Origin: Myxococcales bacterium
Lineage (GTDB): Bacteria; Myxococcota_A; Polyangia; Polyangiales; Polyangiaceae
Direction of reading: 5' to 3'
Assembly: GCA_021778125.1 (NCBI GenBank)
Contig: JAJYCT010000019.1
Location: 1 to 32,306, forward strand
Length of the DNA: 32,306 nucleotides
This document shows, in pieces, positions 4,694-28,414 of this stretch. Positions within the stretch are counted from its first letter, which is position 1, and each line of letters begins with the position of its first letter. A model generated the notes under the pieces. The model saw nothing but the letters and a program-made list of their open reading frames with translations. It ran no database searches and was not told where the DNA came from. A program made the position numbers and the translations under genes.

Positions 4694-4807
4694 AGGATCA
4701 CAGGATTCCGGCGAGGCAGGGGGTCTCGTCGTTCGTTGCGCGGCCTAGGCCGTGCGTTCGTAGGCGCCCACGCTACCACATCGCCCGAAAGCCCCCGGGA
4801 GCAGAGG

Positions 4808-5850: not shown

Positions 5851-5973
5851 GGGCCGCGCCCGACAGTCTACCCACCGTCCGGTGCCCGTCCACGCGCCCT
5901 GAACGCCCGGAGCGGCCGCCGCACCCGATTTCCGCTACTACTGGGCGCCCTGCTCCGACCGACGCCTCGCCTG

Positions 5974-7218: not shown

Positions 7219-7226
7219 CGAGCACC

Positions 7227-10230: not shown

Positions 10231-11975
10231 CCCGCGTCGCTCTTCTCCATCCAGAACGATCCCACCCCCAGGCAATCCATCCGCGTCCGCCGGAAGCAGT
10301 CGATCGCCTGCTCGGGCGTGTGCACGATGGGCTCGTTCTCGTTGAACGAGGTGTTGAGCACCACGGGCGTTCCGGTTCGCTTCTCGAAGGCCGAGATGAG
10401 GTCGTAGTACAGGGCGTTCTCGTCGCGGCGGACGGTCTGCACGCGGCCGGTCCCGTCCTCGTGGGTGATCGCGCTCAGGCGGTCCTTCCACTCGGGGCGC
10501 ACCTTGTAGACGACGATCATGAACGGCACCTCGTGCGTGCCGCGGAAGCAGGTGTCGAGCTTCTCGGCGAGCACCGCCGGCGCGAACGGCCGGAACGGCT
10601 CGCGGTTCTTGATGCGCGCGTTGAGCGTGGCCTTCATGTCGGGCCAGCCCGGGTGGCAGAGGATGCTGCGGTTGCCGAGCGCGCGCGGGCCCCACTCCTC
10701 GCGCCCCTGGAACCAGCCCATGATGCGGCCCTTCGCCAGCGTGTCCGCCGCGCGCTCGATGAGCGCCTCGCGCCCGAGCTTCTCGAACCGCAGGCCGGAC
10801 GCCGCGGCGGCCCTCTCGATCTGCTCGTCGGTCCATTCGGACCCGAGGTACGCGTGGCGCAGCGGCTCGGCGCGCCGGACGCCGTGCTTCTGGTGCTGCA
10901 CGAAGAGCGCCGCCCCGGCGGCCGTGCCGTCGTCGGAGGCCGCGGGGTGGAAGTAGGCGCGATCGGCCACGCGCTCGGTGAGCATCCGCCCGTTCGCCAC
11001 CGAGTTGAGGACGCTGCCGCCGGCCATGACGACGTCCCGGACGCCCACCGCGCGCACGGCGTCCTGCACGTACGCCAGGTACATGTCCTCGAAGTGCGTC
11101 TGCATCGACGCCGCGACGTCGCGCTCGCGATCCTCGACCGGCGCCGGCCGCCGCCGCGCGGTCCCGAGCAGGCGCTCCATCTCGGGCGACCACAGCGCCG
11201 GGACCGACACCTCCTGCCCCTCGACGATCTCGAGGCCCCGCGTCTGCTCGTGGTGCTTGAAGTATCGGAGGTTCAGGCGGAACCCCTCGCCCGGCGCGTA
11301 CGAGGCCAGCTCGCGCATCTCGCGGACGTAGCGGTTCACGCCGTACGCCGAGAGGCCCATCACCTTGTACTCCTCGCCGAAGCGGTCGAAGCCGATGAGC
11401 TGGCAGATCGCCGTGTAGTAGACGCCGGGCGAGTGCGGCCACAGCGTCCGCCGCTCGACGTCGATCCGCGTCCCCTCGCAGCGCGCGATGAGCCCACTGG
11501 CGAAGTCGCCGGCACCGTCGGCCGTGATGCCGGTCGCGCGCTCGAAGGGCGAGCAGAAGAACGAGCTCGCGACGTGCGCGACGTGGTGCTCCACCTGGTG
11601 GAAGCCGGCGCGCACGTCCGCGGCCGCGGCGCCCATCGCGTCGGCCACTTGATCGGACGTGGACGCCACCTCGCGGTGGATGCGCAGGCGGTCGAGCACG
11701 CGGGGCAGGGTCGTCGCCGGCCGCCTGGCCACGAACGCCGCCTTGGCCGCGAGGTTGGCCTTCGGATCCCGCGCGACGGCGATGTCGGTCACGTCGCGCA
11801 GGCTCGCCCCGGCGATCCGCAGCACCTCCTGCACGGCCAGGCGCGGGAAGCCGGCGCAGTGCTTGTTGCGGTTGAGACGCTCCTCGGCGATGGCGGCGAG
11901 CACGCCGCGCTCGCTGACGAGGACCGCCGACGAGTCGGCGTGGGCGGAGTTGATGCCGAGGACGAGGCGGGCCAT
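10227..11975 (-). CDS. Carbamoyltransferase, NodU/CmcH family
   Basis: MARLVLGINSAHADSSAVLVSERGVLAAIAEERLNRNKHCAGFP...VVMAGGSVLNSVANGRM...GREEWGPRALGNRSILCHP...VLNTSFNENEPIVHTPEQAI. Confidence 0.95.
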   Translation of the reverse strand: MARLVLGINSAHADSSAVLVSERGVLAAIAEERLNRNKHCAGFPRLAVQEVLRIAGASLRDVTDIAVARDPKANLAAKAAFVARRPATTLPRVLDRLRIHREVASTSDQVADAMGAAAADVRAGFHQVEHHVAHVASSFFCSPFERATGITADGAGDFASGLIARCEGTRIDVERRTLWPHSPGVYYTAICQLIGFDRFGEEYKVMGLSAYGVNRYVREMRELASYAPGEGFRLNLRYFKHHEQTRGLEIVEGQEVSVPALWSPEMERLLGTARRRPAPVEDRERDVAASMQTHFEDMYLAYVQDAVRAVGVRDVVMAGGSVLNSVANGRMLTERVADRAYFHPAASDDGTAAGAALFVQHQKHGVRRAEPLRHAYLGSEWTDEQIERAAAASGLRFEKLGREALIERAADTLAKGRIMGWFQGREEWGPRALGNRSILCHPGWPDMKATLNARIKNREPFRPFAPAVLAEKLDTCFRGTHEVPFMIVVYKVRPEWKDRLSAITHEDGTGRVQTVRRDENALYYDLISAFEKRTGTPVVLNTSFNENEPIVHTPEQAIDCFRRTRMDCLGVGSFWMEKSDAG

Positions 11976-12111
11976 GCGCGTAAGGAGGGACCTGGTTCGT
12001 TGCGGCGCGGGGTTCAGGCGTTCGGTCGCGTGCAGCGTGCTAGCCTGCGGCCGATTCACCTGAACGCGGGCGCGGTTTGCCGCGTCTTATCATGGGGAAG
12101 CCCCGTCTGCG

Positions 12112-15100
12112 ATGCCCCGACGCGAAGACCTACGCAGCGTAGCCGTCATCGGCTCGGGCCCGATCGTCATCGGGCAGGCGTGCGAGTTCGACTACTCGGG
12201 CACGCAGGGCATCCACGCCCTCGCCGAGGAGGGCGTGCGGGTCGTCGTCGTCAACTCGAACCCCGCGACGATCATGACCGATCCGGACCGCGCGGTCCGC
12301 ACGTACCTCGAGCCGCTCGAGCCCGAGAGCGTGCGGCGCGTGCTCGAGCGCGAGCGGCCCGACGCGCTGCTGCCCACGCTGGGCGGCCAGACGGCGCTCA
12401 ACCTGGCCCTCGCGCTGAGCGACGACGGGACCCTCGAGCGCCTGGGCATCGAGCTGATCGGAGCGTCGGTGCGCTCGATCCGCATGGCGGAACAACGCGA
12501 TCTCTTCCGCGCGGCCATGCAGGGCATCGGCCTCACCTGCCCTGACGCCGAGTACGTCGGCTCCGTCGACGACGGTCTGCGCTTCGCCGAGCGCGTCGGC
12601 CTGCCGGTCATCCTGCGGTCGAGCTTCACCCTCGGCGGCGGGGGCAGCGGCATCGTGCGCGACGAGGCGCCCCTGCGCGAGATGCTCGAGCGGGCGCTGC
12701 GCGGCTCACCCGACGGCCGGATCCTCGTCGAGCAAAGCGTCCTCGGGTGGAAGGAGTTCGAGCTCGAGGTCATCCGCGACGAGGCCGACAACTTCATCGT
12801 CGTGTGCGCCATCGAGAACGTCGATCCGATGGGCGTGCACACCGGTGACTCGATCACCGTCGCCCCCGCGATGACGCTGACCGATCGCGAGTACCAGCGC
12901 CTGCGCGACGCGGCGCGCGCGGTGATGAGCGAGATCGGCGTCACCACGGGCGGCGCCAACGTGCAGTTCGCGGTCGATCCGCGCACCGGCCGCTTCCACG
13001 TCATCGAGATGAACCCGCGCGTCTCACGCTCGAGCGCGCTCGCCTCCAAGGCCACCGGCTACCCGATCGCGCGCGTCGCCACCAAGCTCGCGCTCGGGTA
13101 CCGGCTCGACGAGGTCCGCAACACGATCACCGGCACCGCAGCGGCCATGGAGCCGGTGCTCGACTACGTGGTGGTCAAGTGGCCTCGCTTCGACTTCGAG
13201 CGCTTCCCGGGGGCCGACCGCTCGCTCGGCACGCAGATGAAGAGCATCGGCGAGGTCATGGCGATCGGGCGGACGTTCGCCGAGGCCGCGCAGAAGGCGG
13301 CGTGCTCGCTCGAGACCGGCGCCGACGGCCTGGTGCGCCACGCCACCGATGCGCAGCTCCTCGCGCGTGCGCCGCAGGCGCCGGACGCCGACGCGGCGCT
13401 GCGCGAGCTCGTCGCGACCCCCAGCCCCGAGCGTCTGTTCGACGTGGTCACCGCGCTCGAGCGCGGCTGGTCCGACGCGCAGCTGCATGCGGCGACGGCC
13501 ATCGATCCGTGGTTTATCGCGCAGCTGCGGCGTCTGGTCGCCGCCGAGGCACGCATCTCGGCGAGCGCCGAGGGGTTGCTCGAGGCCAAGCGCCTGGGGT
13601 TCAGCGACGCTGCGATCGCTCGGCGGGTCGGCGAGACGCCCGCGGCCATCGCGGCACGGCGCCATCTGGCGGGTGTCCGCGCGAGCTTCTCGCGCGTCGA
13701 CACGTGCGCGGGCGAGCTCGACACCCGCACCCCCTACCTCTACTCGCACTACGACGGCGGCGACGAGGCGCAGCCGAGCGACCGTCGCAAGGTCATCATC
13801 CTCGGCGCGGGCCCCAACCGCATCGGCCAGGGGCTCGAGTTCGACTACTGCTGCGTGCATGCCGCCTTCGCGCTGCGCGAGGCGGGCGTCGAGTCGGTGA
13901 TGGTCAACTGCAACCCCGAGACGGTGTCGACCGACTACGACATCGCCGACCGGCTCTACTTCGAGCCGCTGACGCTCGAGAGCGTGCTGGCGATCTGCGA
14001 GGAAGAGCAGCGCCAGGGGACGCTCGAGGGCGTCATCGTGCAGCTCGGGGGGCAGACGCCCCTCAAGCTCGCGACGGGGCTGGCCAAGGCGGGTATCCGT
14101 CTGCTCGGCACGTCGGCCGAGACGATCGACCGCGCCGAGGACCGCGAGCAGTTCGAGGCGTTCCTCGAGTCGCTGGCGGTCAGGCGCCCCGAGGCGCGCG
14201 CGGCCCGCTCAATGCCCGAGGCCATCGCCGTCGGGCAGACCCTCGGCTATCCGCTGCTCGTCCGACCGTCCTATGTGCTGGGCGGCCAGGCGATGGCGGT
14301 CTGCCACAGCGCCGACGAGCTCGAGACCTACGGCCGCAGGGCGTTCGTGGGGGCCACCGGCCCCCTGCTGATCGATCGCTTCCTGGGCGAGGCCGTCGAG
14401 GTCGACGTCGACTGCGTGTGCGACGGCGATGACGTGTTCGTCGCGGGGATCCTCGAGCACGTCGAGCGCGCCGGCGTGCACTCGGGCGACTCGGCGGCCG
14501 CCATCCCGCCCTTCTCGCTCAGCGAAGACGTGCAGGAGCGGCTGGCCGAGCAGAGCCGCCAGATCGGCAAGGCGCTGCGCGTCGTCGGCCTGATGAACAT
14601 CCAGTTCGCGGTCGTGGGCGACCAGATCTTCGTCCTCGAGGTCAACCCGCGCGCCTCGCGTACGGTGCCGTTCGTGGCGAAGGCGACGGGCGTGCCGATC
14701 GCGAAGATCGCCGTGCACGTGATGCTCGGGCGCAAGCTCGCCGAGTTCGGGCTCGTCGAGAGGCGACCGCGCTTCACCGCGGTCAAGGAGGCGGTGTTCC
14801 CGTTCGCGCGGCTGCCGGGCGCCGATCCGGCGCTCGGGCCGGAGATGCGTTCGACCGGCGAGGTGATGGGTATCGCGCCGGCGTTCGGGCGCGCTTTTGG
14901 CAAGGCGACGCTCGCTGCCGGTCTTCCACTCGCGTGGGAGGGAGACGTTCTCCTCAGCCTGCCCGGGACCGCCCCTTCGGTCGCCGGAGAGATCGGTCGG
15001 CGTCTGTCGGCGCTGGGCTTCCGACTCGTCGCCACGCCGTCCACCGCCGAGGCCCTTGCGCGCCAGGGACTGGCCGTGGTGCCAAGAGACGACGCCGCCG

Positions 15101-15354
15101 CGCTCGACGAGCTCCGCGCGGGGCGCGTCGCCACGCTGTTCGTGACGGCGACCACGCGCGCCGAGACGGCCGCAACGCGTCCGCTTCGTTGCGAGGCGGT
15201 CGCGCGTGACGTCCCGTACTTCACGACGGTCGCCGCGGGATGCGCCATCCTGACGGCGCTGGAGGCCGGGCGACAGCACACCGAAGCGCCGCTGCTCAGC
15301 CTCCAGGAGTGGCAGGCGGCCCCCAGAAAGGAACGAGGCCGTTTTCTGCTATGA
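12112..15354 (+). CDS. carB: Carbamoyl-phosphate synthase large subunit
   Basis: 1080 aa; [66 protein letters not shown], second half [54 protein letters not shown] and C-terminal MGS-like domain. Confidence 0.97.
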
Positions 15355-15361
15355 GGACGCC

Positions 15362-16408
15362 ATGAAGCGCGCGCTGATCACCGGGATCACCGGCCAGGAC
15401 GGCTCGTACCTCGCCGAGCTCCTGCTCGAGAAGGGCTACGAGGTCCACGGCATCGTCCGGCGGGCGAGCACGTTCAACACCGACCGGATCGACCACCTCT
15501 ACAAGGATCCGCACGATCCGACGGCGCGCCTCTTCCTGCACCACGGCGATCTCTCCGACGGCACGGGTCTGCGGCGCATCCTCGAGCGCGTGCGCCCCGA
15601 CGAGGTCTACCACCTGGGCGCGCAGTCGCACGTGCGCGTCTCCTTCGATGAGCCCGAGTACACCGCCGACGTCGACGGGACCGGGACGCTGCGCCTGCTC
15701 GAGGCGCTGCGCGACTCGATGGGCGGCTCCGGCCGGAGCACGCGCGTGTACAACGCCGGCTCGTCCGAGATGTTCGGCGCCGCGGAGCCCCCGCAAAGCG
15801 AGTCCACCGCGTTCCACCCGCGCAGCCCGTACGCGGTCAGCAAGGTCGCCGCGTTCTGGTACTCGGTGAACTACCGTGAGGCGTACGGGATGTTCGTGTC
15901 CAACGGCATCCTCTTCAACCACGAGTCCCCGCGCCGCGGCGAGACGTTCGTCACGCGCAAGATCACGCGCGCCGCCGCGCGCATCAAGCTGGGCCTGCAG
16001 GACAAGCTCTACCTCGGCAACCTCGAGGCGAAGCGCGACTGGGGCTTCGCGGGCGACTACGTCGAGGCGATGTGGCGGATGCTGCAGCAGGACCGGCCAG
16101 ACGACTACGTCGTCGCCACCGGCGAGGCCTACTCGGTGCGCCAGTTCGTGGAGGCCGCCTTCGCCTTCCACGGCCTCGAGTGGACGCCCTACGTACAGAT
16201 CGAGGAGCGCTACTTCCGCCCCTCCGAGGTCGACCACCTGTGCGGCGACCCGCGCAAGGCGCGCGCGGCGCTCGGATGGGCGCCCCGCGTGAGCTTCCAG
16301 GATCTCGTGAAGATGATGTGCAGCCACGACCTCGAGCTCGCGCGCCAGGAGAAGACGCTGCGCGACGCGGGGCACACCTTGGGCGTACGCGGAGGCGGTC
16401 GCGAATGA
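15362..16408 (+). CDS. gmd: GDP-mannose 4,6-dehydratase
   Basis: [49 protein letters not shown]...[37 protein letters not shown]. Confidence 0.97.
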
Positions 16409-17334
16409 ACAAGGGCGACCGCATCTACGTGGCCGGCCATCGCGGCCTGGTGGGCTCGGCCATCGTGCGCCGCCTCGAGACCGACGGCTTCGACCATCTC
16501 GTCCTGCGCACGCGATCCGAGCTGGATCTGCGCCGCCAGGACCAGGTCGACCGGTTCTTCGAGCAGGAGCGGCCGGACTACGTGTTCCTCGCCGCAGCCA
16601 AGGTCGGCGGCATCTATGCGAACAACGCGTATCCCGCCGACTTCATCCGCGACAACCTCCTCATCCAGACGCACGTCATCGACGCTGCCCACCGGGCGGG
16701 CGTCGAGAAGCTCCTGTTCCTCGGGTCCTCATGCATCTACCCGAAGCAAGCGCCCCAGCCGATGACCGAGGAGTGCCTGCTCACGGGTCCCCTCGAGGCG
16801 ACCAACCGGCCCTACGCGCTCGCCAAGATCGCCGGCCTCGAGATGGTTCGCTCGTACCGCCGGCAGTTCGGTTTCCGGGGTATCGCCGTCATGCCCACCA
16901 ACCTGTACGGCCCGCACGACAACTTCGATCCCGAGACGTCGCACGTGCTGCCGGCGCTGCTCCGCAAGATCCACGAGGCGCGCGCTGCGGGGGCAGCCGA
17001 GGTCGAGGTCTGGGGCACCGGTCAGCCGCGGCGCGAGTTCCTGCACGTCGACGATCTGGCCGACGCCTGCGTGTTCCTGATGCAGCGCTACGAGGGCGAG
17101 CTCGCGCTGAACGTAGGCGTCGGCGACGACGTGACCATCCGGGAGCTCGCCGAGCTGATCGCCGGGGTGGTCGGCTTCGAGGGGAAGCTCCGATTCGATG
17201 CCTCCAAGCCCGACGGCACTCCCCGCAAGCTCCTCGACGTCTCCCGGCTGCATGCCCTGGGCTGGCGCGCGCGCATCTCGCTCGAGAAGGGCGTCGCGGA
17301 CACCTACGAATGGTTCCGGAGACGCGCGACGTGA
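16405..17334 (+). CDS. fcl: GDP-L-fucose synthase
   Basis: [21 protein letters not shown]...[22 protein letters not shown]...[44 protein letters not shown] overlap with gmd. Confidence 0.96.
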
Positions 17335-17399: not shown

Positions 17400-18062
17400 A
17401 TGAGGGCTCGTTTCGCTCGCGGATGCGTCGGCGCGATTGCAGTGTTGGCCATGCTGGGGTCCTACGCCTGCAGCCTGTCCAGCAACGGGGAAGGGACTGT
17501 CGGGCCCGATGGTTCGACGACCGATACGGGCGGGCCGGCGGAGGACGGGGCCACGGAGGCCAGCGTCGTGACGGATTCCTCCATCGTGGACGCGGTGACG
17601 ATGGATGCTCAGTCGGTCGATTCGGGGCCACTCCAGGAGTCCGGCGTGCTCGAAGCGGGCCCTGACTGCGGCGCGGGGTTCCGATGCGGGAACGACTGCC
17701 TGCCTCCGGGCACCGATCCGTGCGGCGCGTGCGACGCGGGACACCTCGCCTGCAACGACGACCAGTCGTGCGTTAGCGACTGCGTCCAGTGCACCGGACG
17801 CCCCGTCGAATGCTGCAACGCTCAGGGGGCTCCGTCCGGAGCGTGCCTCACGTTCTACCTGATCAACACCTTCTACAACGGGCAGTGCCCGACGAACCAG
17901 GTACGCTGCCCCTGCGCAAGCGGCGACGCGGGGTCGTGTCCGAGCGCCAGCCAGGTATGCCTGCAGGATGGCTGTAACGCCTGCGGCGAGACCCCCGGTA
18001 CCGATGGCCTGACGTGTCACGGTTCGGGGACGTGCAGCCTGGAGGCGGGGGCTTGCCTCTAG
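17400..18062 (+). CDS. Secreted Cys-rich protein / putative lipoprotein
   Basis: N-terminal hydrophobic signal MRARFARGCVGAIAVLAMLGSYACSLSS, Asp/Gly/Ser-rich linker, then Cys-rich domain CGAGFRCGNDCLPPGTDPCGACDAGHLACNDDQSCVSDC. Lipobox is non-consensus (SYAC). Confidence 0.7.
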   Translation: MRARFARGCVGAIAVLAMLGSYACSLSSNGEGTVGPDGSTTDTGGPAEDGATEASVVTDSSIVDAVTMDAQSVDSGPLQESGVLEAGPDCGAGFRCGNDCLPPGTDPCGACDAGHLACNDDQSCVSDCVQCTGRPVECCNAQGAPSGACLTFYLINTFYNGQCPTNQVRCPCASGDAGSCPSASQVCLQDGCNACGETPGTDGLTCHGSGTCSLEAGACL

Positions 18063-18922
18063 GCCAGGCCCAGGATCCGCGCCTCGCGACCTGGGTTCGG
18101 CACCAGTACGCCGCAGTAGCGCTCGAACAGGTACTGGTGGCCTTCGACCGAGAAGGCATCGACGCGCTCCCCGTGAAGGGGGTGGTCCTCGCACCGCGGC
18201 TGTACGGCAGCCTCGCTGACCGGCCGATGGGGGACGTCGATCTGCGCGTCCGCCCTGCGGACCTCCAGCGCGTCGCGCGCGTGGCTTCGGCGTCTGGATG
18301 GCCCGTTCGCCGGACCTCCCGACAGCTCGGAACGCTCGATCTTGATGTCTGCAACACACTCATCGAGATCGAGACGACAATCGGTCCACCAGGGGTGTGC
18401 GCGGTGGACGTGGATGCCATGCTCCGCCGTTCGACCGTCCAGACGGCGCCCTTCGGCTTCCGGCACAGGGAGCCGGAGGTCCATGACCACGCGCTCGTCC
18501 TCTGCGTGAACGCGTTCAAGGACCAGCTCCGCTTCGCTCCTCCAACGTGCGCGACCGATCTGGCTCTGCTTGCGCGCCGTCCGGAGTTCCACGCGGACCG
18601 CATGGTGTCGAGAGCCCGCGAAGCCCGCCTTACGGCGCTCGTCTGGCTCGTGGCCGACTGGCTCGAGCGCCGGACACCGGGCACGACGTGGGGCGAGGTG
18701 CTCATCCGGCTGGGAAGCGTGCCTCCCCGCCCGGTCTACGCCCGCGCCTTTGCGGCCACCATCCGGAGCCCGTCGGCGTCCTCGGTTGCCGCAGCGGCCG
18801 TGCTGGCCCGGACCTGCTCGGACGACTGGTGGATGCGCTGCAAGGCACTGGGCCTCGGCGCCCTGGGAACTGCACTGGCCCTCGGTCACCACAAGGGCTG
18901 GGCCGCTCGCACGAGCGCGTGA
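18014..18922 (+). CDS. Nucleotidyltransferase family protein (PF14907-like), of the type found in lasso peptide clusters
   Basis: GIDALPVKGVVLAPRLYGSLADRPMGDVDLRVRPADLQRV (GS...DxD-type motif) ...VHDHALVLCVNAFKDQLRFAPPTCATDLALL; start uncertain (GTG 18014 overlaps the upstream gene by 49 nt). Confidence 0.8.
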   Translation: MSRFGDVQPGGGGLPLGQAQDPRLATWVRHQYAAVALEQVLVAFDREGIDALPVKGVVLAPRLYGSLADRPMGDVDLRVRPADLQRVARVASASGWPVRRTSRQLGTLDLDVCNTLIEIETTIGPPGVCAVDVDAMLRRSTVQTAPFGFRHREPEVHDHALVLCVNAFKDQLRFAPPTCATDLALLARRPEFHADRMVSRAREARLTALVWLVADWLERRTPGTTWGEVLIRLGSVPPRPVYARAFAATIRSPSASSVAAAAVLARTCSDDWWMRCKALGLGALGTALALGHHKGWAARTSA

Positions 18923-18987
18923 ATCTTAGGGGTGGCTCATGACACCAACGTCAGGTAGGGTCGGTGTCCTGTGATGGAGGAGAACCC

Positions 18988-19164
18988 GTGACGGATCGCA
19001 AGCAAGATGGGCTCGAAGCCGCGTGCTCCGGCGCCGGCGAGCAAGCCGCGGCGCGGCGCAAATACTCGCGCCCGACGCTGCGGCATCTAGGCTCGGTCCG
19101 CGAGATCACGCTCGGCGGGACCAAGGGCACCTCCGAGACCGGCGGGCACCGAACGAACGGATGA
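18988..19164 (+). CDS. Lasso-peptide-family precursor (A), 58 aa: leader 1-42, predicted core GGTKGTSETGGHRTNG
   Basis: GTG start with strong RBS (tggaggaga). Leader has YxxPxLxxxG (Y26-S-R-P29-T-L31-R-H-L-G35) and T41 at -2; predicted core starts at G43 with Glu at core position 8, as expected for a G1-E8 macrolactam. Followed by the cyclase gene with ATGA overlap. Confidence 0.88.
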   Translation: MTDRKQDGLEAACSGAGEQAAARRKYSRPTLRHLGSVREITLGGTKGTSETGGHRTNG

Positions 19165-20942
19165 TCGCTGCAGTCCTGGCTCCGAGCGTCGCCGACCGCG
19201 ACGAGCGGATGGCCAGGATCGTCGCGTGGGCGGGGCCCACGAGCGCCCGCTGGACGGTGGGCCGCGCCGTCTTTGCAACGTGGCCGCATTGCGGGCGAGC
19301 GGGCCGCACGGGCGATGGCGCCGTGTTGGGCCGTCTGGATACGGCGGTCGATCACCTGGGGCTGGACCTAGGGCGTGCGAGCGGAGACTTCGCGCTCGTC
19401 AGTCCTGCCGCCGATGACGGCCTCCTGCTCGCCCGGGCGCAGCTCGCAGGCCGCCCCCTCTACTACTGGCGCGACAGGGCGACGGGGGCCGTCGTCGTGT
19501 GCTCGCAACTCGCCGGGTTGCTGCATGTCATCGGGCACCGGCCCTCCTTGAACGTGCAGCGGCTCGCGTCACTCGCGGTCGAATGGCCCCACTTCGATCC
19601 GACCGCGACCGTCTACGACGCCGTCTCCCGTGTGGACCTCGGCCAGGCGCTGGTGTTGTCCCTGGAGCGCCGCGTCGCGACCCGGACCCATGCCATCGGT
19701 GTGGAGCCGCTGCTCGAGGGGACGGCCGAGGAGCTCGCCGACCAGCTCCGGGCACACGTCCTTTCTGCCGTTCGCCGCTCGATCGAGGGTGCGACCCGGG
19801 TGGCCGTGATGGCCGGCGGAGGCGTCGACTCGAGCGGCCTCCTGGCAGCCGCCGTGGCCATCGCTCGGGGGGCTCCGAAGCGCGACGTCCAAGCGATCGC
19901 CTTCGACTTCGCCGGCCCTGGCGACGACCGTCCCTACCTCCGGGCGCTCGCGTCCGCCCTGGGCCTCGAGCCGATCCGGGTCGGAGCGAGTGGCCTGAGC
20001 CCCTTCCTCCGGAAGACGCTCGTCATCGATGCGTCGCCCGCGGCATGGCCATCGATAGCGGTGGACGTAGGCCTCGCGGCGGCAGCCCGGGAGGCCGGCG
20101 CCGATCGCCTGATCTCTGGTGTCTGCGGGGACGATCTCATCGATGGCGAGCCACGGTTCCTCGCCCAGGTCGCACGCGGGGGGCATCTCGTGGAAGCGCT
20201 GCGGGATGCGGTCCGCCTGCGACTCTACTGGAGGACGTCCGCGGCCGAGCGAGTCGTCTCGTTCGTCCTGCGCCCCCTCGCCGCGACCACGCTGCCCTGG
20301 TTGGCCCTCGCGACACGCCGCATGCGCAACCGGGTGGATCAGGACTGGCTCGGACCCGAGCTCCGCGCTCTCGTGGAGACGACTGCGGCGAGGGATCGGC
20401 GTCGCTATCCGCAGGACGTCCATCTGAGGTCGCGGCATCGCATCCTGGCCGCGCGCTACCTGCAGAGCGTGATGGAGGTCCAGGCGCAGGTCACCGCAGC
20501 GACGGGGCTCGCCACGGCGAGCCCCTTCTTGGATCGCGAGCTCGTTTCCTTCGTTACCCGGATCCCTCCGACCATGCTGTTGCACGGAGGTCGCCTCAAA
20601 GGCTTGTACCGGTTGGCCATGCGCGGCCTGGTACCCGACCAGATCCTCGATCGCCCCGACAAGGCGGAGTTCGTCTGCGGCTACGACGAGGTCGTCCAGG
20701 GCGCCGGGGGGTTCGGGGCGCTCGAGGATCTGGCGACCATGAGGGAGCTCGGTAGGCTCGGGCTCGTCGAGCCGGCCCCATACCTGCGCGCGTACCGGAA
20801 GCTCACGGGCGAGGCCCGCGCGAGTGGGGAGTGGCTCCTGCTGTGGCCTGCCCTCGCCGTGGAGGCATTCGTGCGAGCGTACGAGCGGGGAGATCTGACA
20901 CCGCGACCTCCGCGCACTGTCGCCGCGGACGTAAGGGCCTGA
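19161..20942 (+). CDS. Lasso peptide cyclase (C), asparagine-synthase-like (McjC/LarC-type)
   Basis: AsnB-like architecture lacking the N-terminal catalytic Cys; ARAQLAGRPLYYWRD, PP-loop VAVMAGGGVDSSGLLAAAVAIA, LISGVCGDDLIDGEP, TASPFLDRELVSFVTRIPP, GRLKGLYRLAMRGLVPDQILDRPDKAEF. Confidence 0.9.
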   Translation: MIAAVLAPSVADRDERMARIVAWAGPTSARWTVGRAVFATWPHCGRAGRTGDGAVLGRLDTAVDHLGLDLGRASGDFALVSPAADDGLLLARAQLAGRPLYYWRDRATGAVVVCSQLAGLLHVIGHRPSLNVQRLASLAVEWPHFDPTATVYDAVSRVDLGQALVLSLERRVATRTHAIGVEPLLEGTAEELADQLRAHVLSAVRRSIEGATRVAVMAGGGVDSSGLLAAAVAIARGAPKRDVQAIAFDFAGPGDDRPYLRALASALGLEPIRVGASGLSPFLRKTLVIDASPAAWPSIAVDVGLAAAAREAGADRLISGVCGDDLIDGEPRFLAQVARGGHLVEALRDAVRLRLYWRTSAAERVVSFVLRPLAATTLPWLALATRRMRNRVDQDWLGPELRALVETTAARDRRRYPQDVHLRSRHRILAARYLQSVMEVQAQVTAATGLATASPFLDRELVSFVTRIPPTMLLHGGRLKGLYRLAMRGLVPDQILDRPDKAEFVCGYDEVVQGAGGFGALEDLATMRELGRLGLVEPAPYLRAYRKLTGEARASGEWLLLWPALAVEAFVRAYERGDLTPRPPRTVAADVRA

Positions 20943-20952
20943 AGGCCCCGCC

Positions 20953-21744
20953 ATGGCCGCCCTTACCTGGCTCTGCGAGCAGCGTGAGCGCGACGAGCTG
21001 ATCTTCCGGGTCGGACGTGACGGAGAGAGCCTCGTGGCCGACTTCGTGGGCGTCGGAAGGCTCAGCGCTCGCCCGGGCGATCCGGCGCCGACGTTCGAGC
21101 CCTACCCGGATGCCTCACCGGCGGCGGTCGCCAAGCTGCTCGAAGGCCCGGTCCCGGCCTTGCTGCGCACCCTCGAAGGGAGGCTCGCCCTGCACGGCGC
21201 GTCGGCCGCGCGGAACGGCCGCGCCATCGTCTGCGTGGGCCCGAGCGGAGCCGGAAAGTCGACGACGATCGCAGAGCTCGCGCGGCGTGCGGGCGTCGAG
21301 CTCGTGAGCGACGACGCGGCGGCGCTCGATGCCGTGGAGGGGCGGATCCAGATCACGCCGACCGAGCCTACGAGCTGGCTGTTGCCCGCGGCGCGAAGGG
21401 CCTTGGGACTCGATGCCTCATCCGAGTTCAAGACCCGGGTCGCTCCACGAGCGCGGTGCACCGGGCGGCCAGACGTCATCGCGATCTGTGGTCTCACGTT
21501 CGACGACTCGGCGGAACCGAGTCTTCGTCGACTCGCGGGGGCCGAGGCCTTCGCCGTGCTGGCCGGTTGCGCGGTTCGATTCGACATCGACGACCCGACG
21601 GCGCGCGTCCGGGAGCTCGAGCAACTCATGGAGGTCTGCCGACGAGTCTCGATCTTCGAGCTGCGCCGTCCGCGCGCGTTGGAGAAGCTGTCCGCCCTCG
21701 GCGACCTGCTGGAGGCTCTTCTGACTGCCGGGGGGAATCCATGA
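20953..21744 (+). CDS. HPr kinase/phosphorylase homolog (lasso precursor kinase type)
   Basis: LEGRLALHGASAARNGRAIVCVGPSGAGKSTTIAELARRAGVELVSDDAAALD: Walker A GPSGAGKST and downstream SDD motif of HprK-like kinases; sits between cyclase and B1. Confidence 0.88.
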   Translation: MAALTWLCEQRERDELIFRVGRDGESLVADFVGVGRLSARPGDPAPTFEPYPDASPAAVAKLLEGPVPALLRTLEGRLALHGASAARNGRAIVCVGPSGAGKSTTIAELARRAGVELVSDDAAALDAVEGRIQITPTEPTSWLLPAARRALGLDASSEFKTRVAPRARCTGRPDVIAICGLTFDDSAEPSLRRLAGAEAFAVLAGCAVRFDIDDPTARVRELEQLMEVCRRVSIFELRRPRALEKLSALGDLLEALLTAGGNP

Positions 21745-22034
21745 GGCTCGGCGACCACGATCGCGTCCTCGTCGCTACGGGGGTCCACGTGCGGGAGTTC
21801 GAAGGGGAGCTGATCATCCTCGACCTGGCGCGCGGCGACTACTTCGGGCTCGACGAGGTGGGGGCGCGCATGTGGGTCCAGCTCGCGGCCGGACGGACCC
21901 TGCGTGAGGTGGCCGAGGTGCTCTCGGCCGAGTACGGTGAACCCGTGGATCGAGTGCTCGACGATGCGCGCCATCTGGTCGAAGCGCTCCTCGAGCGCGG
22001 CCTGGCCGTGGTAGCAGCCAAGGCCCAGCCATGA
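21741..22034 (+). CDS. PqqD-family RiPP recognition element (lasso B1)
   Basis: 97-aa; VREFEGELIILDLARGDYFGLDEVGARMWVQLAAGRTLREVAEVLSAEYGEPVDRVLDDARHLVEALLERGL is a PqqD/B1 fold signature; ATGA overlaps on both sides. Confidence 0.92.
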   Translation: MRLGDHDRVLVATGVHVREFEGELIILDLARGDYFGLDEVGARMWVQLAAGRTLREVAEVLSAEYGEPVDRVLDDARHLVEALLERGLAVVAAKAQP

Positions 22035-22384
22035 GGGCCGTCGCGGCCGCACACGCGCTGCACGCCGTGGCCCGGATGGCTCTTCGGCTGGCCTCCCCGT
22101 TGAGGGCGAAGCGCATCGTCGATGCCGTGGGGCGCCGTATGCCCCGCCTGCTTGCGCACGAAGCGCGAGCCGTCGCGAACGCCATCGACTCCCGAGGAAC
22201 GTGCCTGAGCCGGGCCATGACGGTTGCGGCCATGGTCCCGGGCGCGGCCGTCGTGATCGGGGTCGATCCGCTCGCCCGTCGTCCGCTGTTCGGTCACGCG
22301 TGGGTAGAACTGGCAGGCCAGCCCCTGCGCCCGGGCGACGTCGACGGCTTCGAAATCGCGCGCCTGGTGACGGATCAGCCGTGA
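22031..22384 (+). CDS. Lasso peptide B2 leader peptidase (transglutaminase-like)
   Basis: DSRGTCLSRAMTVAAMV (catalytic Cys), GHAWVELAGQPL (His) plus downstream Asp; typical short B2 protein directly after B1. Confidence 0.92.
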   Translation: MRAVAAAHALHAVARMALRLASPLRAKRIVDAVGRRMPRLLAHEARAVANAIDSRGTCLSRAMTVAAMVPGAAVVIGVDPLARRPLFGHAWVELAGQPLRPGDVDGFEIARLVTDQP

Positions 22385-22447: not shown

Positions 22448-23482
22448 GTGAAGAACTTGCTGCGCGTGGCTGGTGCCTTGGGGGCCGTCGGTACCGTGGT
22501 TGGAGCTCTGGTCATGACGGGAGCGGGGTGTTCCGGTTCGACGGCTACGTCGCCGGGCTCCGACGCGGGGGAGGACGCAACGGGGGACTCGGCAGCCGAC
22601 GGCGGCGAGGACGTCACGTCGACCGAGACCGGAACCGACTCGGGAACGGTCGACTCCAGCACGGTCGACTCCGGGACCAGGGACTCCGGCACGGTCGACT
22701 CGGGCACGGTGGATTCGGGGATCATCGTGGACTCCGGCTCCGTTGACTCTGGCACCGGCGACGGCAGCCCGGAAGCGGCCCCGTCCTACGCCTTCTTCCC
22801 CAACGAGGTCGTGCAGACCATCTGCAACCACCTCGCAACATGCTGCGAAGGCTCGAACACGTCCTCCTTCAACATGCAGCAGTGCTTCGCGGTGTTCACG
22901 TCGTTCGGCGGACTCAACGGCGACGGCCTCTACCTCGCCGAGCCGGCCCTGCAGGCCGACGGCGGGGCCGCGGTGGCGTACAACCCGAGCGCGGCGGCAG
23001 CATGTCTAGCGGACATCTCCGCGCTGCCCTGCGGCAGCGTCCACGACACGTCATGGCAGCAGGTGACCAGTCAGTGCTTCGCGGCGCTGACGGGGGGCAT
23101 TCCGGTCAACGGCACGGGCTGCCACGGGTCGATCGAGTGCGCGCCCGACTCTTATTGCAGCAACGGGACGTGCACTCCCATCCTCGCGCTGGGGGCGCCG
23201 TGTACGACGAACGACCAGTGCCAGTACCGTGGCACGGCACCCAAGACGGCGTACTGCGACTACCAGTACCCGAACCCGGACGCGGGCACGCAGACCTGCG
23301 TCGCGGCGCAGCCGACCGGTTCAGTCTGCGGGTACACGTTCTATTATCCCAACGAATGCCAGACGTTCGTGTGCAACGCGAGCTCGGGTCTCTGTGACAC
23401 GGCCCAGCTCTTCAGCGATCCCGGTGTGTCGCAGGGTCTGTGCGACTCGTTGACCATCAAGGACGCAGGCGGCGGCGGCTGA
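22448..23482 (+). CDS. Putative lipoprotein with Asp-Ser-Gly repeat linker and Cys-rich domain
   Basis: GTG start with RBS aaggag; VKNLLRVAGALGAVGTVVGALVMTGAGCSGS (lipobox-like TGAGC); linker ...DSGTVDSSTVDSGTRDSGTVDSGTVDSGIIVDSGSVDSGTGDG; then Cys-rich domain. Confidence 0.75.
   Translation: MKNLLRVAGALGAVGTVVGALVMTGAGCSGSTATSPGSDAGEDATGDSAADGGEDVTSTETGTDSGTVDSSTVDSGTRDSGTVDSGTVDSGIIVDSGSVDSGTGDGSPEAAPSYAFFPNEVVQTICNHLATCCEGSNTSSFNMQQCFAVFTSFGGLNGDGLYLAEPALQADGGAAVAYNPSAAAACLADISALPCGSVHDTSWQQVTSQCFAALTGGIPVNGTGCHGSIECAPDSYCSNGTCTPILALGAPCTTNDQCQYRGTAPKTAYCDYQYPNPDAGTQTCVAAQPTGSVCGYTFYYPNECQTFVCNASSGLCDTAQLFSDPGVSQGLCDSLTIKDAGGGG
22630..22760 (+). repeat. In-gene low-complexity repeat encoding (T/S)VDSG units
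   Basis: Recurring gactccggcacggtcgactcgggcacggtggattcggg-type units, about 15-18 nt each. Confidence 0.7.
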
Positions 23483-23602: not shown

Positions 23603-24883
23603 ATGAACGAACGCATCGCGGTCATCGGTCTGGGCTACGTGGGCCTGCCCGTGGCTCTGGCCTTTGCCCGGAGGTTCCCTGGCACCATCGGCTTCGACGT
23701 CAACGCGGAGAAAGTCGACGAGCTGCGACGCGGCTTCGATCGGAACCACGAGCAGCCGCGCGAGGTGCTCGAATCCACCTCGTTGCAGATGACGGCCAAC
23801 CTGGCCGATCTTCAGGGCGCAACCTTCTTCGTCGTCGCAGTGCCGACGCCCGTCGACCAGAACAACCTCCCCGACCTCACGCCGGTCGAGCGCGCCAGCG
23901 AGGCGGTCGCCCGGGTCCTCTCCAAGGGCACCGTGGTCGTCTACGAGTCGACAGTCTACCCCGGGGTCACGGAGGAGATCTGCGGTCCGATCCTCGAGCG
24001 CGTGAGCGGATTGAAGCAGGGCGTCGACTTCAAGCTCGGCTACTCTCCCGAGCGGATCAACCCAGGAGACAAGGAGCACACGCTCGAGCGCATCACGAAG
24101 GTCGTGAGCGGGGAGGACGCCGCGACGCTCGAGCGCGTTGCGTCGGCCTACGGCGCGATCATCGACGCCGGTGTCCACCGCGCGCCGAGCATCCGCGTCG
24201 CCGAGGCGGCGAAGGTCATCGAAAACACTCAGCGCGACCTGAACATCGCCCTCATGAACGAGCTGGCGATCATCTTCGACCGCATCGGGATCCGTACGTC
24301 CGACGTCCTGGCGGCGGCGTCCACGAAGTGGAACTTCCTGCGCTTCCGCCCCGGGCTCGTCGGCGGTCACTGCATCGGCGTGGATCCGTACTACCTGACG
24401 ATGAAGGCGCAGCAGCTCGGCTACCAGCCCGAGGTCATCCTCGCGGGGCGCCGCATCAACAACAACATGGGGCCGTACGTTGCGGCGAAGGTCGTCAAGC
24501 TGCTCATCGACGCGGACCTCAGCGTGAAGGGAGCGCGTGTGGGCGTGCTCGGCCTGACGTTCAAGGAGGACTGCAGCGACATCCGCAACAGCCGGGTGCC
24601 GGACATCCTGCGGGAGCTGAAGCAGTTCGGTATCGAACCGCTGGTGCATGACCCGATCGCGGACGCCAGCGACGCGGCGCATGAGTACGGAATCAAGCTC
24701 GTGTCGGTCGACGAGCTGGCTCGCCTCGATGCGCTCGTGCTTGCAGTGAGCCACCGCTGGTACCTCGACCGGGGAACCGAGGCGTTGAACTGCATGCTGC
24801 GCAGGGGCGGGGTCCTGATCGACGTGAAGAGCGCGCTCGAACCTGCTCAGGTCCGCGCCGACGTGAGGTATTGGAGCCTGTAG
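23603..24883 (+). CDS. tviB: UDP-N-acetylhexosamine 6-dehydrogenase (TviB/WbpO-like nucleotide sugar dehydrogenase)
   Basis: IAVIGLGYVGLPVALAFARRF, VPTPVDQNNLPDLTPVERASEAV, YESTVYPGVTEEICGP, GYSPERINPGDKEH, AKVIENTQRDLNIALMNELAIIFDRIGIRTSDVLAAASTKWNFLRFRPGLVGGHCIGVDPYYLT. Confidence 0.9.
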   Translation: MNERIAVIGLGYVGLPVALAFARRFPGTIGFDVNAEKVDELRRGFDRNHEQPREVLESTSLQMTANLADLQGATFFVVAVPTPVDQNNLPDLTPVERASEAVARVLSKGTVVVYESTVYPGVTEEICGPILERVSGLKQGVDFKLGYSPERINPGDKEHTLERITKVVSGEDAATLERVASAYGAIIDAGVHRAPSIRVAEAAKVIENTQRDLNIALMNELAIIFDRIGIRTSDVLAAASTKWNFLRFRPGLVGGHCIGVDPYYLTMKAQQLGYQPEVILAGRRINNNMGPYVAAKVVKLLIDADLSVKGARVGVLGLTFKEDCSDIRNSRVPDILRELKQFGIEPLVHDPIADASDAAHEYGIKLVSVDELARLDALVLAVSHRWYLDRGTEALNCMLRRGGVLIDVKSALEPAQVRADVRYWSL

Positions 24884-25168: not shown

Positions 25169-26659
25169 ATGCGCAGCGCAGCGGCTTGGGCCGCGGTCGT
25201 CGTTCCGACGCTGACCGCGACGATGCTCGGGTGCTCCGGATCGACGGGCCCGCTGGGGCCCACGGGAGCGCAGGGCCCGCAAGGGCCGGAAGGTTCCCAG
25301 GGCGCACAGGGGCCCCAGGGCGACGCAGGAGCGCCCGGAGCGCCCGGCACCAGCGGGCCGCAGTCCCTCTCCGGCGTGGTCCCGGCGGTGGGGTTGCTCG
25401 ACCGAGGGGTCGACGTCGTCTTGCTGGGCAGCGGCACCGCGTTCACGTCGTCCACGAGCATCGACTTCGGGCCGGGTATCGCGGTCTCCAGCGTCATGCG
25501 CCTGTCTGCGAGCGCCTTGTCGGCGCACCTCGCGATCGACGCCACTGCAGCAGTGGGGGCGAGAGCCGTGAGCGTGACCACGGGCGATCAGAAGTTCCTC
25601 GCGGCCGGCGCCTTCCGCGTGGCTGCGCCGATTGACGTGGCCATCACGGCGGGCAATGCCATCCAGGGAGGGCTGGTGCAGCTCGACGTGGTCGACCAGG
25701 ACGGCGACTCCTTCAGCACCAGCTCGATGGCGATCATCGGTTCGGTGAGCACGCTGGGAACCGTCTCCGCGGAGACAGCTACACGCGCGTCGGTCATCGC
25801 GTTCGTCGACCCTCTGGCCCCTGCGGGCGCAGCGCAGCTCGAAGTGGCGAACGTCGAGCTCAGCCTCGGAGGCGCAGTCGTCTTTCCGGAGACCTTCTTG
25901 AGCACGCCGAGGGCGGTGACCGTAGGTACGGGCGCGCTGCTCTGGCTCAGTCCGGGAAGTCCGCTCGCCAAGGAGCGGATCGACGCCGTCGCCGGGACCC
26001 GAGCCTACAAGACGTACACGACGGGCCCCGGCGTGGTGTCCGTCGCTGTGACGCCGACCTCGGGCAGCCGCATGGCACCGCGGCTCAACGTGTATCCGAC
26101 GAGCGGCCGCTCCGCCGACCTCGTGGGCTCGGTGGCGGCCTCGATGCCGAGCATCGCCTATCCGGTGCTCGACAAGACGTGGACGTACTCGGTGGTCAGC
26201 GACCAGACGCTCGGCGGCGGCTCGTCCCTGTACGGCTACGGCATCGCCGCCGACTTCCGCGGCGCCGACGCGATCCAGACCGAGGCGCCAGGCCTGCACT
26301 TCAACGCGGCGAGCGCGCAAGTGATGTGCGCGACCGTGGCGGCGCAGGGGGCGGGCGTTTGCCTGTTGACGGGCGCAGTGGCGCCCGTCACGGACTTCGA
26401 CGTCTATCAGCTTCCGGCCACCGGACAGCCGACCGATGTCTACGTTTCGAGCGCGTTCGACACGCAGGCCTGGCTGACCCAGGACCAGACGCTCGTCCGC
26501 GTGGACGGCGACCTGTCCCCGGTCTGGCCGGCGCACGTGGCCGCGCACACCATCGACGGGAGCGCTCCCTGGTACATCGTGGTCGAGGGCCGGAGCGGTG
26601 GGTCCGCCCCGACGGGCAACTACGCGATCGGCGTCGCCATCCACGCGGCCGATCCCTAG
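25169..26659 (+). CDS. Putative lipoprotein with collagen-like Gly-X-Y segment
   Basis: Signal MRSAAAWAAVVVPTLTATMLGCSGS, then GSTGPLGPTGAQGPQGPEGSQGAQGPQGDAGAPGAPGTSGPQ (14 Gly-X-Y triplets), followed by a large beta-rich-looking extracellular region. Confidence 0.82.
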   Translation: MRSAAAWAAVVVPTLTATMLGCSGSTGPLGPTGAQGPQGPEGSQGAQGPQGDAGAPGAPGTSGPQSLSGVVPAVGLLDRGVDVVLLGSGTAFTSSTSIDFGPGIAVSSVMRLSASALSAHLAIDATAAVGARAVSVTTGDQKFLAAGAFRVAAPIDVAITAGNAIQGGLVQLDVVDQDGDSFSTSSMAIIGSVSTLGTVSAETATRASVIAFVDPLAPAGAAQLEVANVELSLGGAVVFPETFLSTPRAVTVGTGALLWLSPGSPLAKERIDAVAGTRAYKTYTTGPGVVSVAVTPTSGSRMAPRLNVYPTSGRSADLVGSVAASMPSIAYPVLDKTWTYSVVSDQTLGGGSSLYGYGIAADFRGADAIQTEAPGLHFNAASAQVMCATVAAQGAGVCLLTGAVAPVTDFDVYQLPATGQPTDVYVSSAFDTQAWLTQDQTLVRVDGDLSPVWPAHVAAHTIDGSAPWYIVVEGRSGGSAPTGNYAIGVAIHAADP

Positions 26660-26734: not shown

Positions 26735-28414
26735 GTGCGTGCGCGAGTCCGCGAGACACTAGGGCTCCTTGCGTCGGTCTCGTCGCCAGCGGCGGGGCCC
26801 GGCGCTCGGGCGGTGGCAGCGCTGGCGCTCCTCGAGCGCCTACTGACGCCAGCGACGGCCTGGTTCGTCCTGCAAGGCGGGCTCGCCGCGAAGATCGGCG
26901 CGACGGCCACGCTGGCGGCCGTCTTCACGCTAAGGAGCTTCGCGCAGCGTACGCTGGCGGCACGACGCGAGGCGCAGCTGTTCGAGCGGGTCATCTCGAC
27001 GCTCATCGAAGGCGAGGTTCTCCGCGCCAGAGTGCTGCTGAGGCGCGACGCCCGCAGTGACCTACCGCAAGCAGTCCACTACTCGGCCATCACCCAGGCG
27101 CAGACCGTCCCCAACCTGCTCGCCGACACGGCAGCATCGATCCTGCTGATGCTCGTCGTGCTGACGATCGAGCCCGTTCGACTCGTGCTGTCGGCCGCCG
27201 CGCTGACGGCGGTGGCAGCTGCCGGCGTCGTCTGGTCTCGAGGGCGCCTGCAGCGAGCCGCGAAGCGTGCGTGGGCTGCACAGGAAGCGGTGATTCTCGC
27301 GCTCGTCGACGCGCTCGAGGGTCGCCTCGAAGTCGTGGCGGCTGGCCGAGGTGACGCCTTCCTGGACGAAGCCCGTGCACGGGCGCGTGCCTGGTGGCGG
27401 GCCAGCTCGCGCGTGGCCTCGGCGACGCTCGTGTCGGGTCGCCTTCCCATGCTCGCGGTGGCCGCCGCCGTCGTGGTCCTCGTGGCGCTGAGCTCTCGTT
27501 CGCGCGGGGTGCTCGCGATCACGCTCCCGGACCTCGCGCTCTTCGCGAGCGTCACCCCCGCGTTCGCGGGCATCGCACAGGGCCTCTATGCGCTCACACA
27601 GGCCGAACCGTGGTTAGGCCTGGTCGCTGAGACCCTTCGTCTGTCGAAACGGCCTCCGGGGGGCGCGCGACCGGTGCCGCAGCTACCCGCGACCGTCGAC
27701 TTTGCCCGCGTATCGTTCGAGTACGGCCCCTCGGGAACCCGCCGCGCGCTGCAGGACGTTACCTTCGCCTGGGATCGCGGCCGCGTCTTGGCTCTCGCTG
27801 GCACCAATGGCTCGGGCAAGAGCACGTGCCTGCGCCTTCTGCTCGGTCTTGCCCCGCCGATCGCGGGCCACATCACGATCGGCGGAGTCTCGCTGTCCGA
27901 GCTCGACATCGAGGCCTGGCGCCGCGGCATCGCGTTCCTCCCCCAGCGCGCGTACATGCCGCCGCAGGCCGATCTCGGTGCCGCGATCCGTTTCCTGGTC
28001 CCCGAAGCGACTGATGATCGGATCCTCGCCGCCCTCGACCGCGTCGGCCTGCTCGCATCGCTCCACCGCTTCGGGGACGCTCCCCTCGCCGCCCCCATCG
28101 ACGCCCTCTCCGTCGGCGAACGCCAGCGCGTCGCGATCGCGCGCCTGCTCTGCCACGACGCCGCGGTGTACCTTCTCGACGAGCCGGACGCGAACCTGGA
28201 TCGCGCGGGGATCGCCTTGTGCGCCCGGCTCGTACGCGAGCTCTCTCAGGGCGCGATGGTCGCGTTCGCGGCACACACCCCCGAGCTCATCGAGGCTGCG
28301 GATGACGTGCTGACCCTGGAGCGCGGGCGCGGGGTCGCCAATCTCGAGCCCGACGTGTCCGCGTTACGTCATGGCAAGGTCGACATCTCCGGAGGCGGCG
28401 CAAACTCCGAGTAG
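26735..28414 (+). CDS. ABC transporter, fused TM-ATPase half transporter (exporter type)
   Basis: GTG start; N-terminal TM region then VDFARVSFEYGPSGTRRALQDVTF, Walker A GTNGSGKST, Q-loop LPQRAYMPP, signature LSVGERQRVAIARLL, Walker B AVYLLDEPDANLD, H-loop AAHTPE. Confidence 0.9.
   Translation: MRARVRETLGLLASVSSPAAGPGARAVAALALLERLLTPATAWFVLQGGLAAKIGATATLAAVFTLRSFAQRTLAARREAQLFERVISTLIEGEVLRARVLLRRDARSDLPQAVHYSAITQAQTVPNLLADTAASILLMLVVLTIEPVRLVLSAAALTAVAAAGVVWSRGRLQRAAKRAWAAQEAVILALVDALEGRLEVVAAGRGDAFLDEARARARAWWRASSRVASATLVSGRLPMLAVAAAVVVLVALSSRSRGVLAITLPDLALFASVTPAFAGIAQGLYALTQAEPWLGLVAETLRLSKRPPGGARPVPQLPATVDFARVSFEYGPSGTRRALQDVTFAWDRGRVLALAGTNGSGKSTCLRLLLGLAPPIAGHITIGGVSLSELDIEAWRRGIAFLPQRAYMPPQADLGAAIRFLVPEATDDRILAALDRVGLLASLHRFGDAPLAAPIDALSVGERQRVAIARLLCHDAAVYLLDEPDANLDRAGIALCARLVRELSQGAMVAFAAHTPELIEAADDVLTLERGRGVANLEPDVSALRHGKVDISGGGANSE

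What the first reader, a model, noticed from the sequence alone, without database searches (positions are those of the whole stretch)
18014..22384. Compact lasso-peptide-type RiPP cassette with kinase and nucleotidyltransferase
Seen: precursor with YxxPxLxxxG...T leader, AsnB-like cyclase without catalytic Cys, HprK-like kinase, PqqD-like B1, transglutaminase-like B2, preceded by a PF14907-like nucleotidyltransferase, all on + strand. Established: A/C/B1/B2 suffice to define a lasso pathway (B1 binds leader, B2 cleaves, C cyclises). HprK-like kinases occur in paeninodin-type clusters, and nucleotidyltransferases also accompany lasso clusters. Inference: a functional tailored lasso peptide or lasso-like RiPP from a (likely) myxobacterial host.
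Basis: partly seen in the sequence, partly recalled or inferred. Interest (0 to 1): 0.92.

Follow-up and report, generated by a model that had tools for sequence, protein, structure and literature searches.

The report
Myxobacterial phosphorylated lasso-peptide gene cluster
A myxobacterium carries a complete set of genes to make a small knotted peptide that is probably phosphorylated on its ring rather than at its tail, and relatives show that a cysteine-rich surface protein is a regular, overlooked part of the set.

Summary
In detail: 18014-22384 holds NTase-A-C-K-B1-B2 on the + strand, with all families placed by HMM and start/stop overlaps at A/C, K/B1 and B1/B2. The precursor (18988-19164) has Y(-17), P(-14), L(-12) and T(-2), giving a predicted 16-residue core GGTKGTSE-TGGHRTNG with a G1-E8 ring. 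The host is a Polyangiaceae myxobacterium.

Paeninodin and pseudomycoidin kinases act on a C-terminal Ser; this core ends in Gly. In 25 precursors of this kinase clade, acidic residues sit at core 8/9 in 24, the C-terminus is Met in 15 and Ser in 2, and position 3 is Thr/Ser in 16. A characterised lasso kinase (BsfK; PMC10368454) phosphorylates exactly residue 3. Best reading: Thr3 phosphorylation.

The cassette is larger than reported. A Cys-rich lipoprotein (22448-23482) lies beside the cassette in 23 of 25 related cassettes, and an ABC exporter (26735-28414) matches the exporters of those cassettes.

Expression, lasso fold, phosphosite, and the roles of NTase and lipoprotein remain inferred. 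In two sister species the precursor is fused to a Ser/Lys intramolecular-chaperone domain that would set a C-terminal Met.

The parts
18014..18922 (+). N: PF14907 nucleotidyltransferase-like protein with GDVDL (DxD) motif; candidate for adding a group to the phosphate (start codon uncertain)
   Evidence: Pfam 90.6 bits; the only PF14907 gene in the genome; 65 nt upstream of the precursor
18988..19164 (+). A: lasso precursor, 58 aa, GTG start with GGAGGA upstream; leader residues 1-42
   Evidence: Y(-17) P(-14) L(-12) T(-2) spacing
19114..19161 (+). predicted core GGTKGTSETGGHRTNG, ring G1-E8, putative phospho-acceptor Thr3
   Evidence: inference
19161..20942 (+). C: asparagine-synthase-like lasso macrolactam cyclase, no glutaminase Cys
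   Evidence: PF00733 120 bits; TIGR01536 and NF033535 (lasso cyclase) best NCBIfam hits
20953..21744 (+). K: HprK/PEPCK-fold peptide kinase, catalytic His/Lys/Asp-Asp retained
   Evidence: AF2 model pLDDT 92.9 and Foldseek hits to HprK/P and PEPCK
21741..22034 (+). B1: PqqD-like leader-recognition (RRE) protein
   Evidence: PF05402 52.5 bits, NF033530
22031..22384 (+). B2: transglutaminase-like leader peptidase, Cys58/His89
   Evidence: PF13471 35.1 bits; alignment
22448..23482 (+). Lp: secreted lipoprotein with Asp-rich linker and about 20 invariant Cys; conserved neighbour of this cassette type
26735..28414 (+). D: ABC exporter (about 330 aa N-terminal part + ATPase); best matches are the exporters of related lasso cassettes; separated here by two other genes
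   Evidence: PF00005 98 bits; phmmer 1e-92 to 1e-54 in cassette loci

Best explanation
It is a complete lasso-peptide biosynthetic cluster of a kinase-bearing type that is widespread in Polyangiaceae. B1 binds the YxxPxL leader. The kinase, helped by B1, phosphorylates a ring hydroxyl of the linear precursor, most likely core Thr3. B2 cuts after T(-2)-L(-1). C closes the Gly1-Glu8 macrolactam around the 8-residue tail TGGHRTNG. The linked PF14907 enzyme may then add a group (hexose in pseudomycoidin) to the phosphate. The ABC protein at 26735 exports the product. A Cys-rich lipoprotein encoded directly downstream probably acts outside the cytoplasm as a dedicated partner, immunity or receptor protein. 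Shown here by sequence: gene content, leader and core anatomy, intact catalytic motifs, conserved lipoprotein and exporter. Inferred: threading, phosphosite, NTase reaction, lipoprotein role, expression.
For: HMM placement of all enzymes. Leader spacing Y-17/P-14/L-12/T-2. Acidic residue at core 8/9 in 24 of 25 relatives, p < 5e-5. Kinase catalytic residues invariant; PEPCK/HprK fold. C-terminal Ser in only 2 of 25; T/S at position 3 in 16 of 25, p = 1.5e-4 against ring shuffles; the window kinase's four nearest relatives by path (L054, L104, L103, L143) all pair, like the window, with GxT cores; L069, L107 and L147 have position 3 as the only hydroxyl in the core. BsfK, in an A/B1/B2/C/D/K/N cluster, was shown to phosphorylate Ser3, accepts Thr3 and is accelerated by B1 (PMC10368454). 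Lipoprotein in 23 of 25 related cassettes with enough flank; a single-sequence family-wide search puts 11 of 16 hits inside these cassettes, and one further hit (L190) lies beside a B2 and an ABC gene. Exporter homology.
Against: No product has been detected. Position 3 is not Ser/Thr in 9 of 25 relatives (they have S/T at 2, 4 or 5), so the site may vary; the 25 are related, so shuffle p-values are optimistic. BsfK falls outside the window kinase's clade (though on a long branch), so its specificity cannot simply be carried over. One of three kinase-free cassettes also has Ser3 (L198). The PF14907 gene is unlinked in several close relatives. D is separated from B2 by a UDP-glucose dehydrogenase and a collagen-like lipoprotein gene.
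Confidence: 0.72

Rival explanations
1. Lasso cluster as above, but the kinase modifies another site: Thr6/Ser7 in the ring, Thr9/Thr14 in the tail, or variably any accessible ring Ser/Thr.
For: The window core has five hydroxyl residues; 9 of 25 relatives lack S/T at position 3 but all have some ring hydroxyl.
Against: Position 3 is the only enriched hydroxyl column in the ring (16 of 25; others at most 6 of 25), it is the sole core hydroxyl in three relatives (L069, L107, L147), and BsfK is strictly position-3 specific.
Confidence: 0.2
2. Paeninodin/pseudomycoidin-type cluster in which K phosphorylates, and N glycosylates, the C-terminal residue.
For: Same K+N gene pair.
Against: No C-terminal Ser: the core ends in Asn-Gly; 23 of 25 relatives also lack one.
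Confidence: 0.02
3. A lasso-like RiPP cassette whose product is a non-threaded macrolactam, or a silent cluster.
For: Only sequence evidence exists; threading cannot be read from sequence; the tail has no bulky plug residue except His/Arg.
Against: All enzymes are intact with conserved motifs, gene overlaps are preserved, and the same gene set recurs across many Polyangiaceae genera.
Confidence: 0.12
4. The PF14907 gene is an unrelated neighbour and not part of the pathway.
For: PF14907 occurs above cut-off in 79 of 108 family genomes, often unlinked to the cassette.
Against: It is the only copy in this genome and sits 65 nt from the precursor on the same strand; PF14907 genes lie within 6 kb of the kinase in 11 related cassettes; N genes occur in the bsf and pseudomycoidin clusters.
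Confidence: 0.35

Closest known systems
bsf cluster of Bradymonas sediminis FA350 (PMC10368454)
   Same: A, B1, B2, C, D, K and N genes; Y(-17)/P(-14)/L(-12) leader; Gly1 with acidic residue 8; no C-terminal Ser; hydroxyl at core position 3, shown to be the phosphosite there
   Different: bsf has Ile(-2) (here Thr); BsfK is in a different kinase clade; bsf is described with seven ORFs and no lipoprotein
Pseudomycoidin (psm) cluster, Bacillus pseudomycoides
   Same: Kinase plus nucleotidyltransferase tailoring pair in a lasso cluster
   Different: Phosphate and hexoses sit on a C-terminal Ser, which is absent here
Paeninodin (PadeK) and ThcoK/SyanK clusters
   Same: HprK-like kinase with the His-Lys-Asp-Asp motif acting in a lasso pathway
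   Different: They require a C-terminal Ser; here the C-terminus is Gly, and mostly Met in relatives

Membership tests
Lasso peptide biosynthetic cluster | Precursor with YxxPxL leader, T(-2), residue 1 amine and Asp/Glu at core 7-9 | tested here: met
Lasso peptide biosynthetic cluster | AsnB-like cyclase lacking a functional glutaminase site | tested here: met
Lasso peptide biosynthetic cluster | B1 (PqqD-like RRE) and B2 (PF13471 Cys-His protease) | tested here: met
   B2 is just under the NF033537 cut-off (32.2 vs 33) but over Pfam's
Lasso peptide biosynthetic cluster | Threaded lariat product | not testable with these tools
   needs MS/NMR
Paeninodin-type phosphorylated lasso | HprK-like kinase with His, Lys, Asp-Asp | tested here: met
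Paeninodin-type phosphorylated lasso | C-terminal Ser in the precursor | tested here: not met
   core ends ...TNG
Pseudomycoidin-type phosphoglycosylated lasso | K and N genes linked to the lasso genes | tested here: met
Pseudomycoidin-type phosphoglycosylated lasso | C-terminal Ser acceptor | tested here: not met
bsf-type (position-3 phosphorylated) lasso | Ser/Thr at core position 3, no C-terminal Ser | tested here: met
bsf-type (position-3 phosphorylated) lasso | Kinase of the BsfK clade | tested here: inconclusive
   BsfK groups with the other kinase set (SH-aLRT 99) but on a very long branch
bsf-type (position-3 phosphorylated) lasso | Ile at leader position -2 | tested here: not met
   Thr(-2)
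bsf-type (position-3 phosphorylated) lasso | Phosphate on residue 3 of the precursor | not testable with these tools
   needs co-expression and MS/MS

The most novel reading that the evidence does not exclude
Polyangiaceae use a distinct lasso pathway in which a ring-phosphorylated lasso peptide works together with a dedicated Cys-rich outer lipoprotein (receptor, carrier or immunity partner). In many members the core C-terminus is a conserved Met, which two sister species generate by fusing the precursor to a self-cleaving intramolecular-chaperone (S74/ICA) domain.
Probability: 0.35. Interest if true: 0.68.

Novelty: new variant of a known kind. Interest (0 to 1): 0.47.

Why it matters
It extends ring-phosphorylated lasso peptides, so far shown for one Bradymonas enzyme, to a myxobacterial family with many sequenced examples whose cores make the position-3 site testable by simple co-expression. 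It also shows that a lipoprotein is a regular member of the gene set, giving a first handle on what these phosphorylated lasso peptides do outside the cell, which is an open question. The natural lasso-chaperone fusions in sister species would be a new way to define a lasso C-terminus.

Tried and rejected
Paeninodin-type C-terminal phosphorylation: rejected, no C-terminal Ser. The idea that the lipoprotein neighbour is mere background: rejected after the family-wide single-sequence search and after inspecting nine of its relatives outside the collected cassettes: L190, L193, L196, L197 and L198 lie beside lasso genes; L191, L192, L194 and L195 do not, so a few non-lasso paralogues exist. Kinase-free cassettes as a control for position 3: only three, with Ala, Ala and Ser, too few to decide. 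Orthology of BsfK with the window kinase: not supported by the tree, so the position-3 inference rests on conservation here plus analogy. An alignment search of the class with the kinase profile failed on the server and was replaced by a single-sequence search. The genome-contig scan found only three relatives.

Full report
What is there. The window is one whole contig (C161) of a 5.9 Mb draft genome; named relatives are Myxococcales/Polyangiaceae. Six genes on the + strand run from 18014 to 22384. HMM searches place them as PF14907 nucleotidyltransferase, lasso precursor (NF033521 leader model, over its cut-off), asparagine-synthase-type cyclase, HprK-related kinase, PqqD-type B1 and PF13471-type B2. 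Junctions are tight: the precursor stop overlaps the cyclase start, and K/B1 and B1/B2 share ATGA. PF13471 occurs only once in the genome, and so does PF14907.

Precursor. VTDRKQDGLEAACSGAGEQAAARRKYSRPTLRHLGSVREITL | GGTKGTSETGGHRTNG. Tyr, Pro and Leu fall at -17, -14 and -12, the positions described for B1 recognition (PMC10368454), with Thr at -2. Cleavage there leaves Gly1 and Glu8, an 8-residue ring. The predicted lasso is 1497.692 Da.

Relatives. PF13471 was searched in 184 genomes of the order and the window kinase in 290 of the class, and loci were fetched. Twenty-five precursors belonging to the window kinase's clade were collected. Core position 8 or 9 is acidic in 24 of 25, against 3.2 expected from shuffled cores. 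This is the strongest sequence evidence for a real lasso family. The C-terminal residue is Met in 15 and Ser in 2. Position 3 is Ser/Thr in 16, more than in ring shuffles (p 1.5e-4, optimistic because the sequences are related); no other ring column exceeds 6. In L069, L107 and L147 the position-3 hydroxyl is the only one in the core.

Kinase. Catalytic His81, Lys102, Ser103, Asp120 and Asp121 are invariant and match the residues shown to matter in BsfK and in PadeK/ThcoK. The AlphaFold model is confident (pLDDT 92.9) and matches the PEPCK/HprK superfamily. In a tree of 44 lasso-linked kinases the window kinase lies in a well supported Polyangiaceae group, separate from a second group that includes BsfK and kinases whose precursors do end in Ser (L074, L080, L081, L083). 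The window's nearest kinases all go with GxT cores.

Mechanism. The literature has two acceptor types: a C-terminal Ser (paeninodin, ThcoK, SyanK, pseudomycoidin; PMC8498205, PMC9266682) and Ser3 (BsfK; PMC10368454). The position-3 enrichment was computed before the BsfK paper was read, so the two lines are independent. BsfK also accepts Thr3. I therefore predict Thr3 phosphorylation on the linear precursor, promoted by B1, before leader removal and cyclisation. This step is inference.

Larger cassette. The gene directly downstream of B2 (22448-23482) encodes a lipoprotein: signal peptide with lipobox Cys, Asp-rich linker, about 20 invariant Cys. A homologue lies close to the cassette, usually directly after K/B1/B2, in 23 of 25 related cassettes with enough flank; L054 lacks it and L146 has an unmatched 340-aa ORF in the same slot. 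A search with the window protein alone over 108 family genomes gave 16 hits, 11 of them inside these cassettes; another (L190) lies beside a B2 and an ABC gene, and hits of the wider profile search in L193, L196, L197 and L198 sit in further lasso loci, three of them without a detected kinase. The lipoprotein thus tracks the lasso pathway rather than the kinase. Its role is unknown; partner, receptor or immunity protein are guesses. The ABC protein at 26735-28414 is most similar to the exporters of these cassettes and is probably D.

The nucleotidyltransferase. PF14907 genes lie within 6 kb of the kinase in 11 cassettes, the window included, but short relatives are unlinked in other cassette-bearing genomes. 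Participation is likely here, not proven.

Fusion precursors in sister species. In L103 and L104 (two species of one genus, same cassette) the leader and core continue in frame into a ~110-aa domain. Pfam gives sub-threshold Peptidase_S74. Homologous domains end many Polyangiaceae lipoproteins, with a Ser and a Lys five residues later invariant in 15 sequences. The model's best PDB match is the MyRF intramolecular-chaperone auto-processing domain (TM 0.79). Cleavage before that Ser would leave ...TMMM or ...GMGM, the same C-terminal Met that free-standing relatives encode. This is inference, but specific and testable. In a 2026 review the term search found only engineered lasso fusions (PMC13352647), and a text search for lasso peptide plus Peptidase S74 found nothing.

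Verdict. The finding is real and correctly recognised as a tailored lasso cluster. The paeninodin analogy needs correction, and the cassette should be extended by the lipoprotein and exporter. It is a variant of a known kind rather than a new kind.

Noticed in passing
L103:4135-4761 (+) and L104:4724-5326 (+): Lasso leader-core fused in frame to an S74/MyRF-ICA-like Ser/Lys auto-processing chaperone domain; predicted self-cleavage would leave a C-terminal Met like that of unfused relatives.
   Followed up: yes
L143-L154 and L158-L162: Many related cassettes (A-C-K-B1-Lp) have no recognisable B2; in G145 a B2 50% identical to the window's lies in trans (L072:8086-8571), while most g37 genomes are not among the PF13471 hits at all, so their leader peptidase is unknown.
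   Followed up: partly
L196, L197, L198: Minimal lasso loci without a detected kinase, with precursors such as GGASGFAEGAGSFIRPMM, in L197/L198 with a cyclase, and with a large lipoprotein downstream; in L196/L197 next to a CarB-like gene; L196 has Ala at leader -2.
   Followed up: partly
L159:1222-1883 and L087:10642-11135: Two tandem, similar lasso precursors in one cassette.
   Followed up: no
window 17400-18062 (+): A second Cys-rich lipoprotein just upstream of the NTase with the same kind of Asp/Ser-rich linker; no homologue in the other loci fetched.
   Followed up: partly
window 3143-17334 and 23603-24883: The cassette sits among surface-glycan-type genes: GT4, glutamine-dependent AsnB, carbamoyltransferase, CarB, GDP-mannose dehydratase, a second sugar epimerase, UDP-glucose dehydrogenase.
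   Followed up: no
window 25169-26659 (+): Collagen-repeat lipoprotein between the lasso genes and the exporter, without relatives in the related cassettes.
   Followed up: no
L104:3312-4577 and L147:4524-5657: A PrmA/arginine-methyltransferase-like gene directly upstream of the lasso precursor in two cassettes.
   Followed up: no
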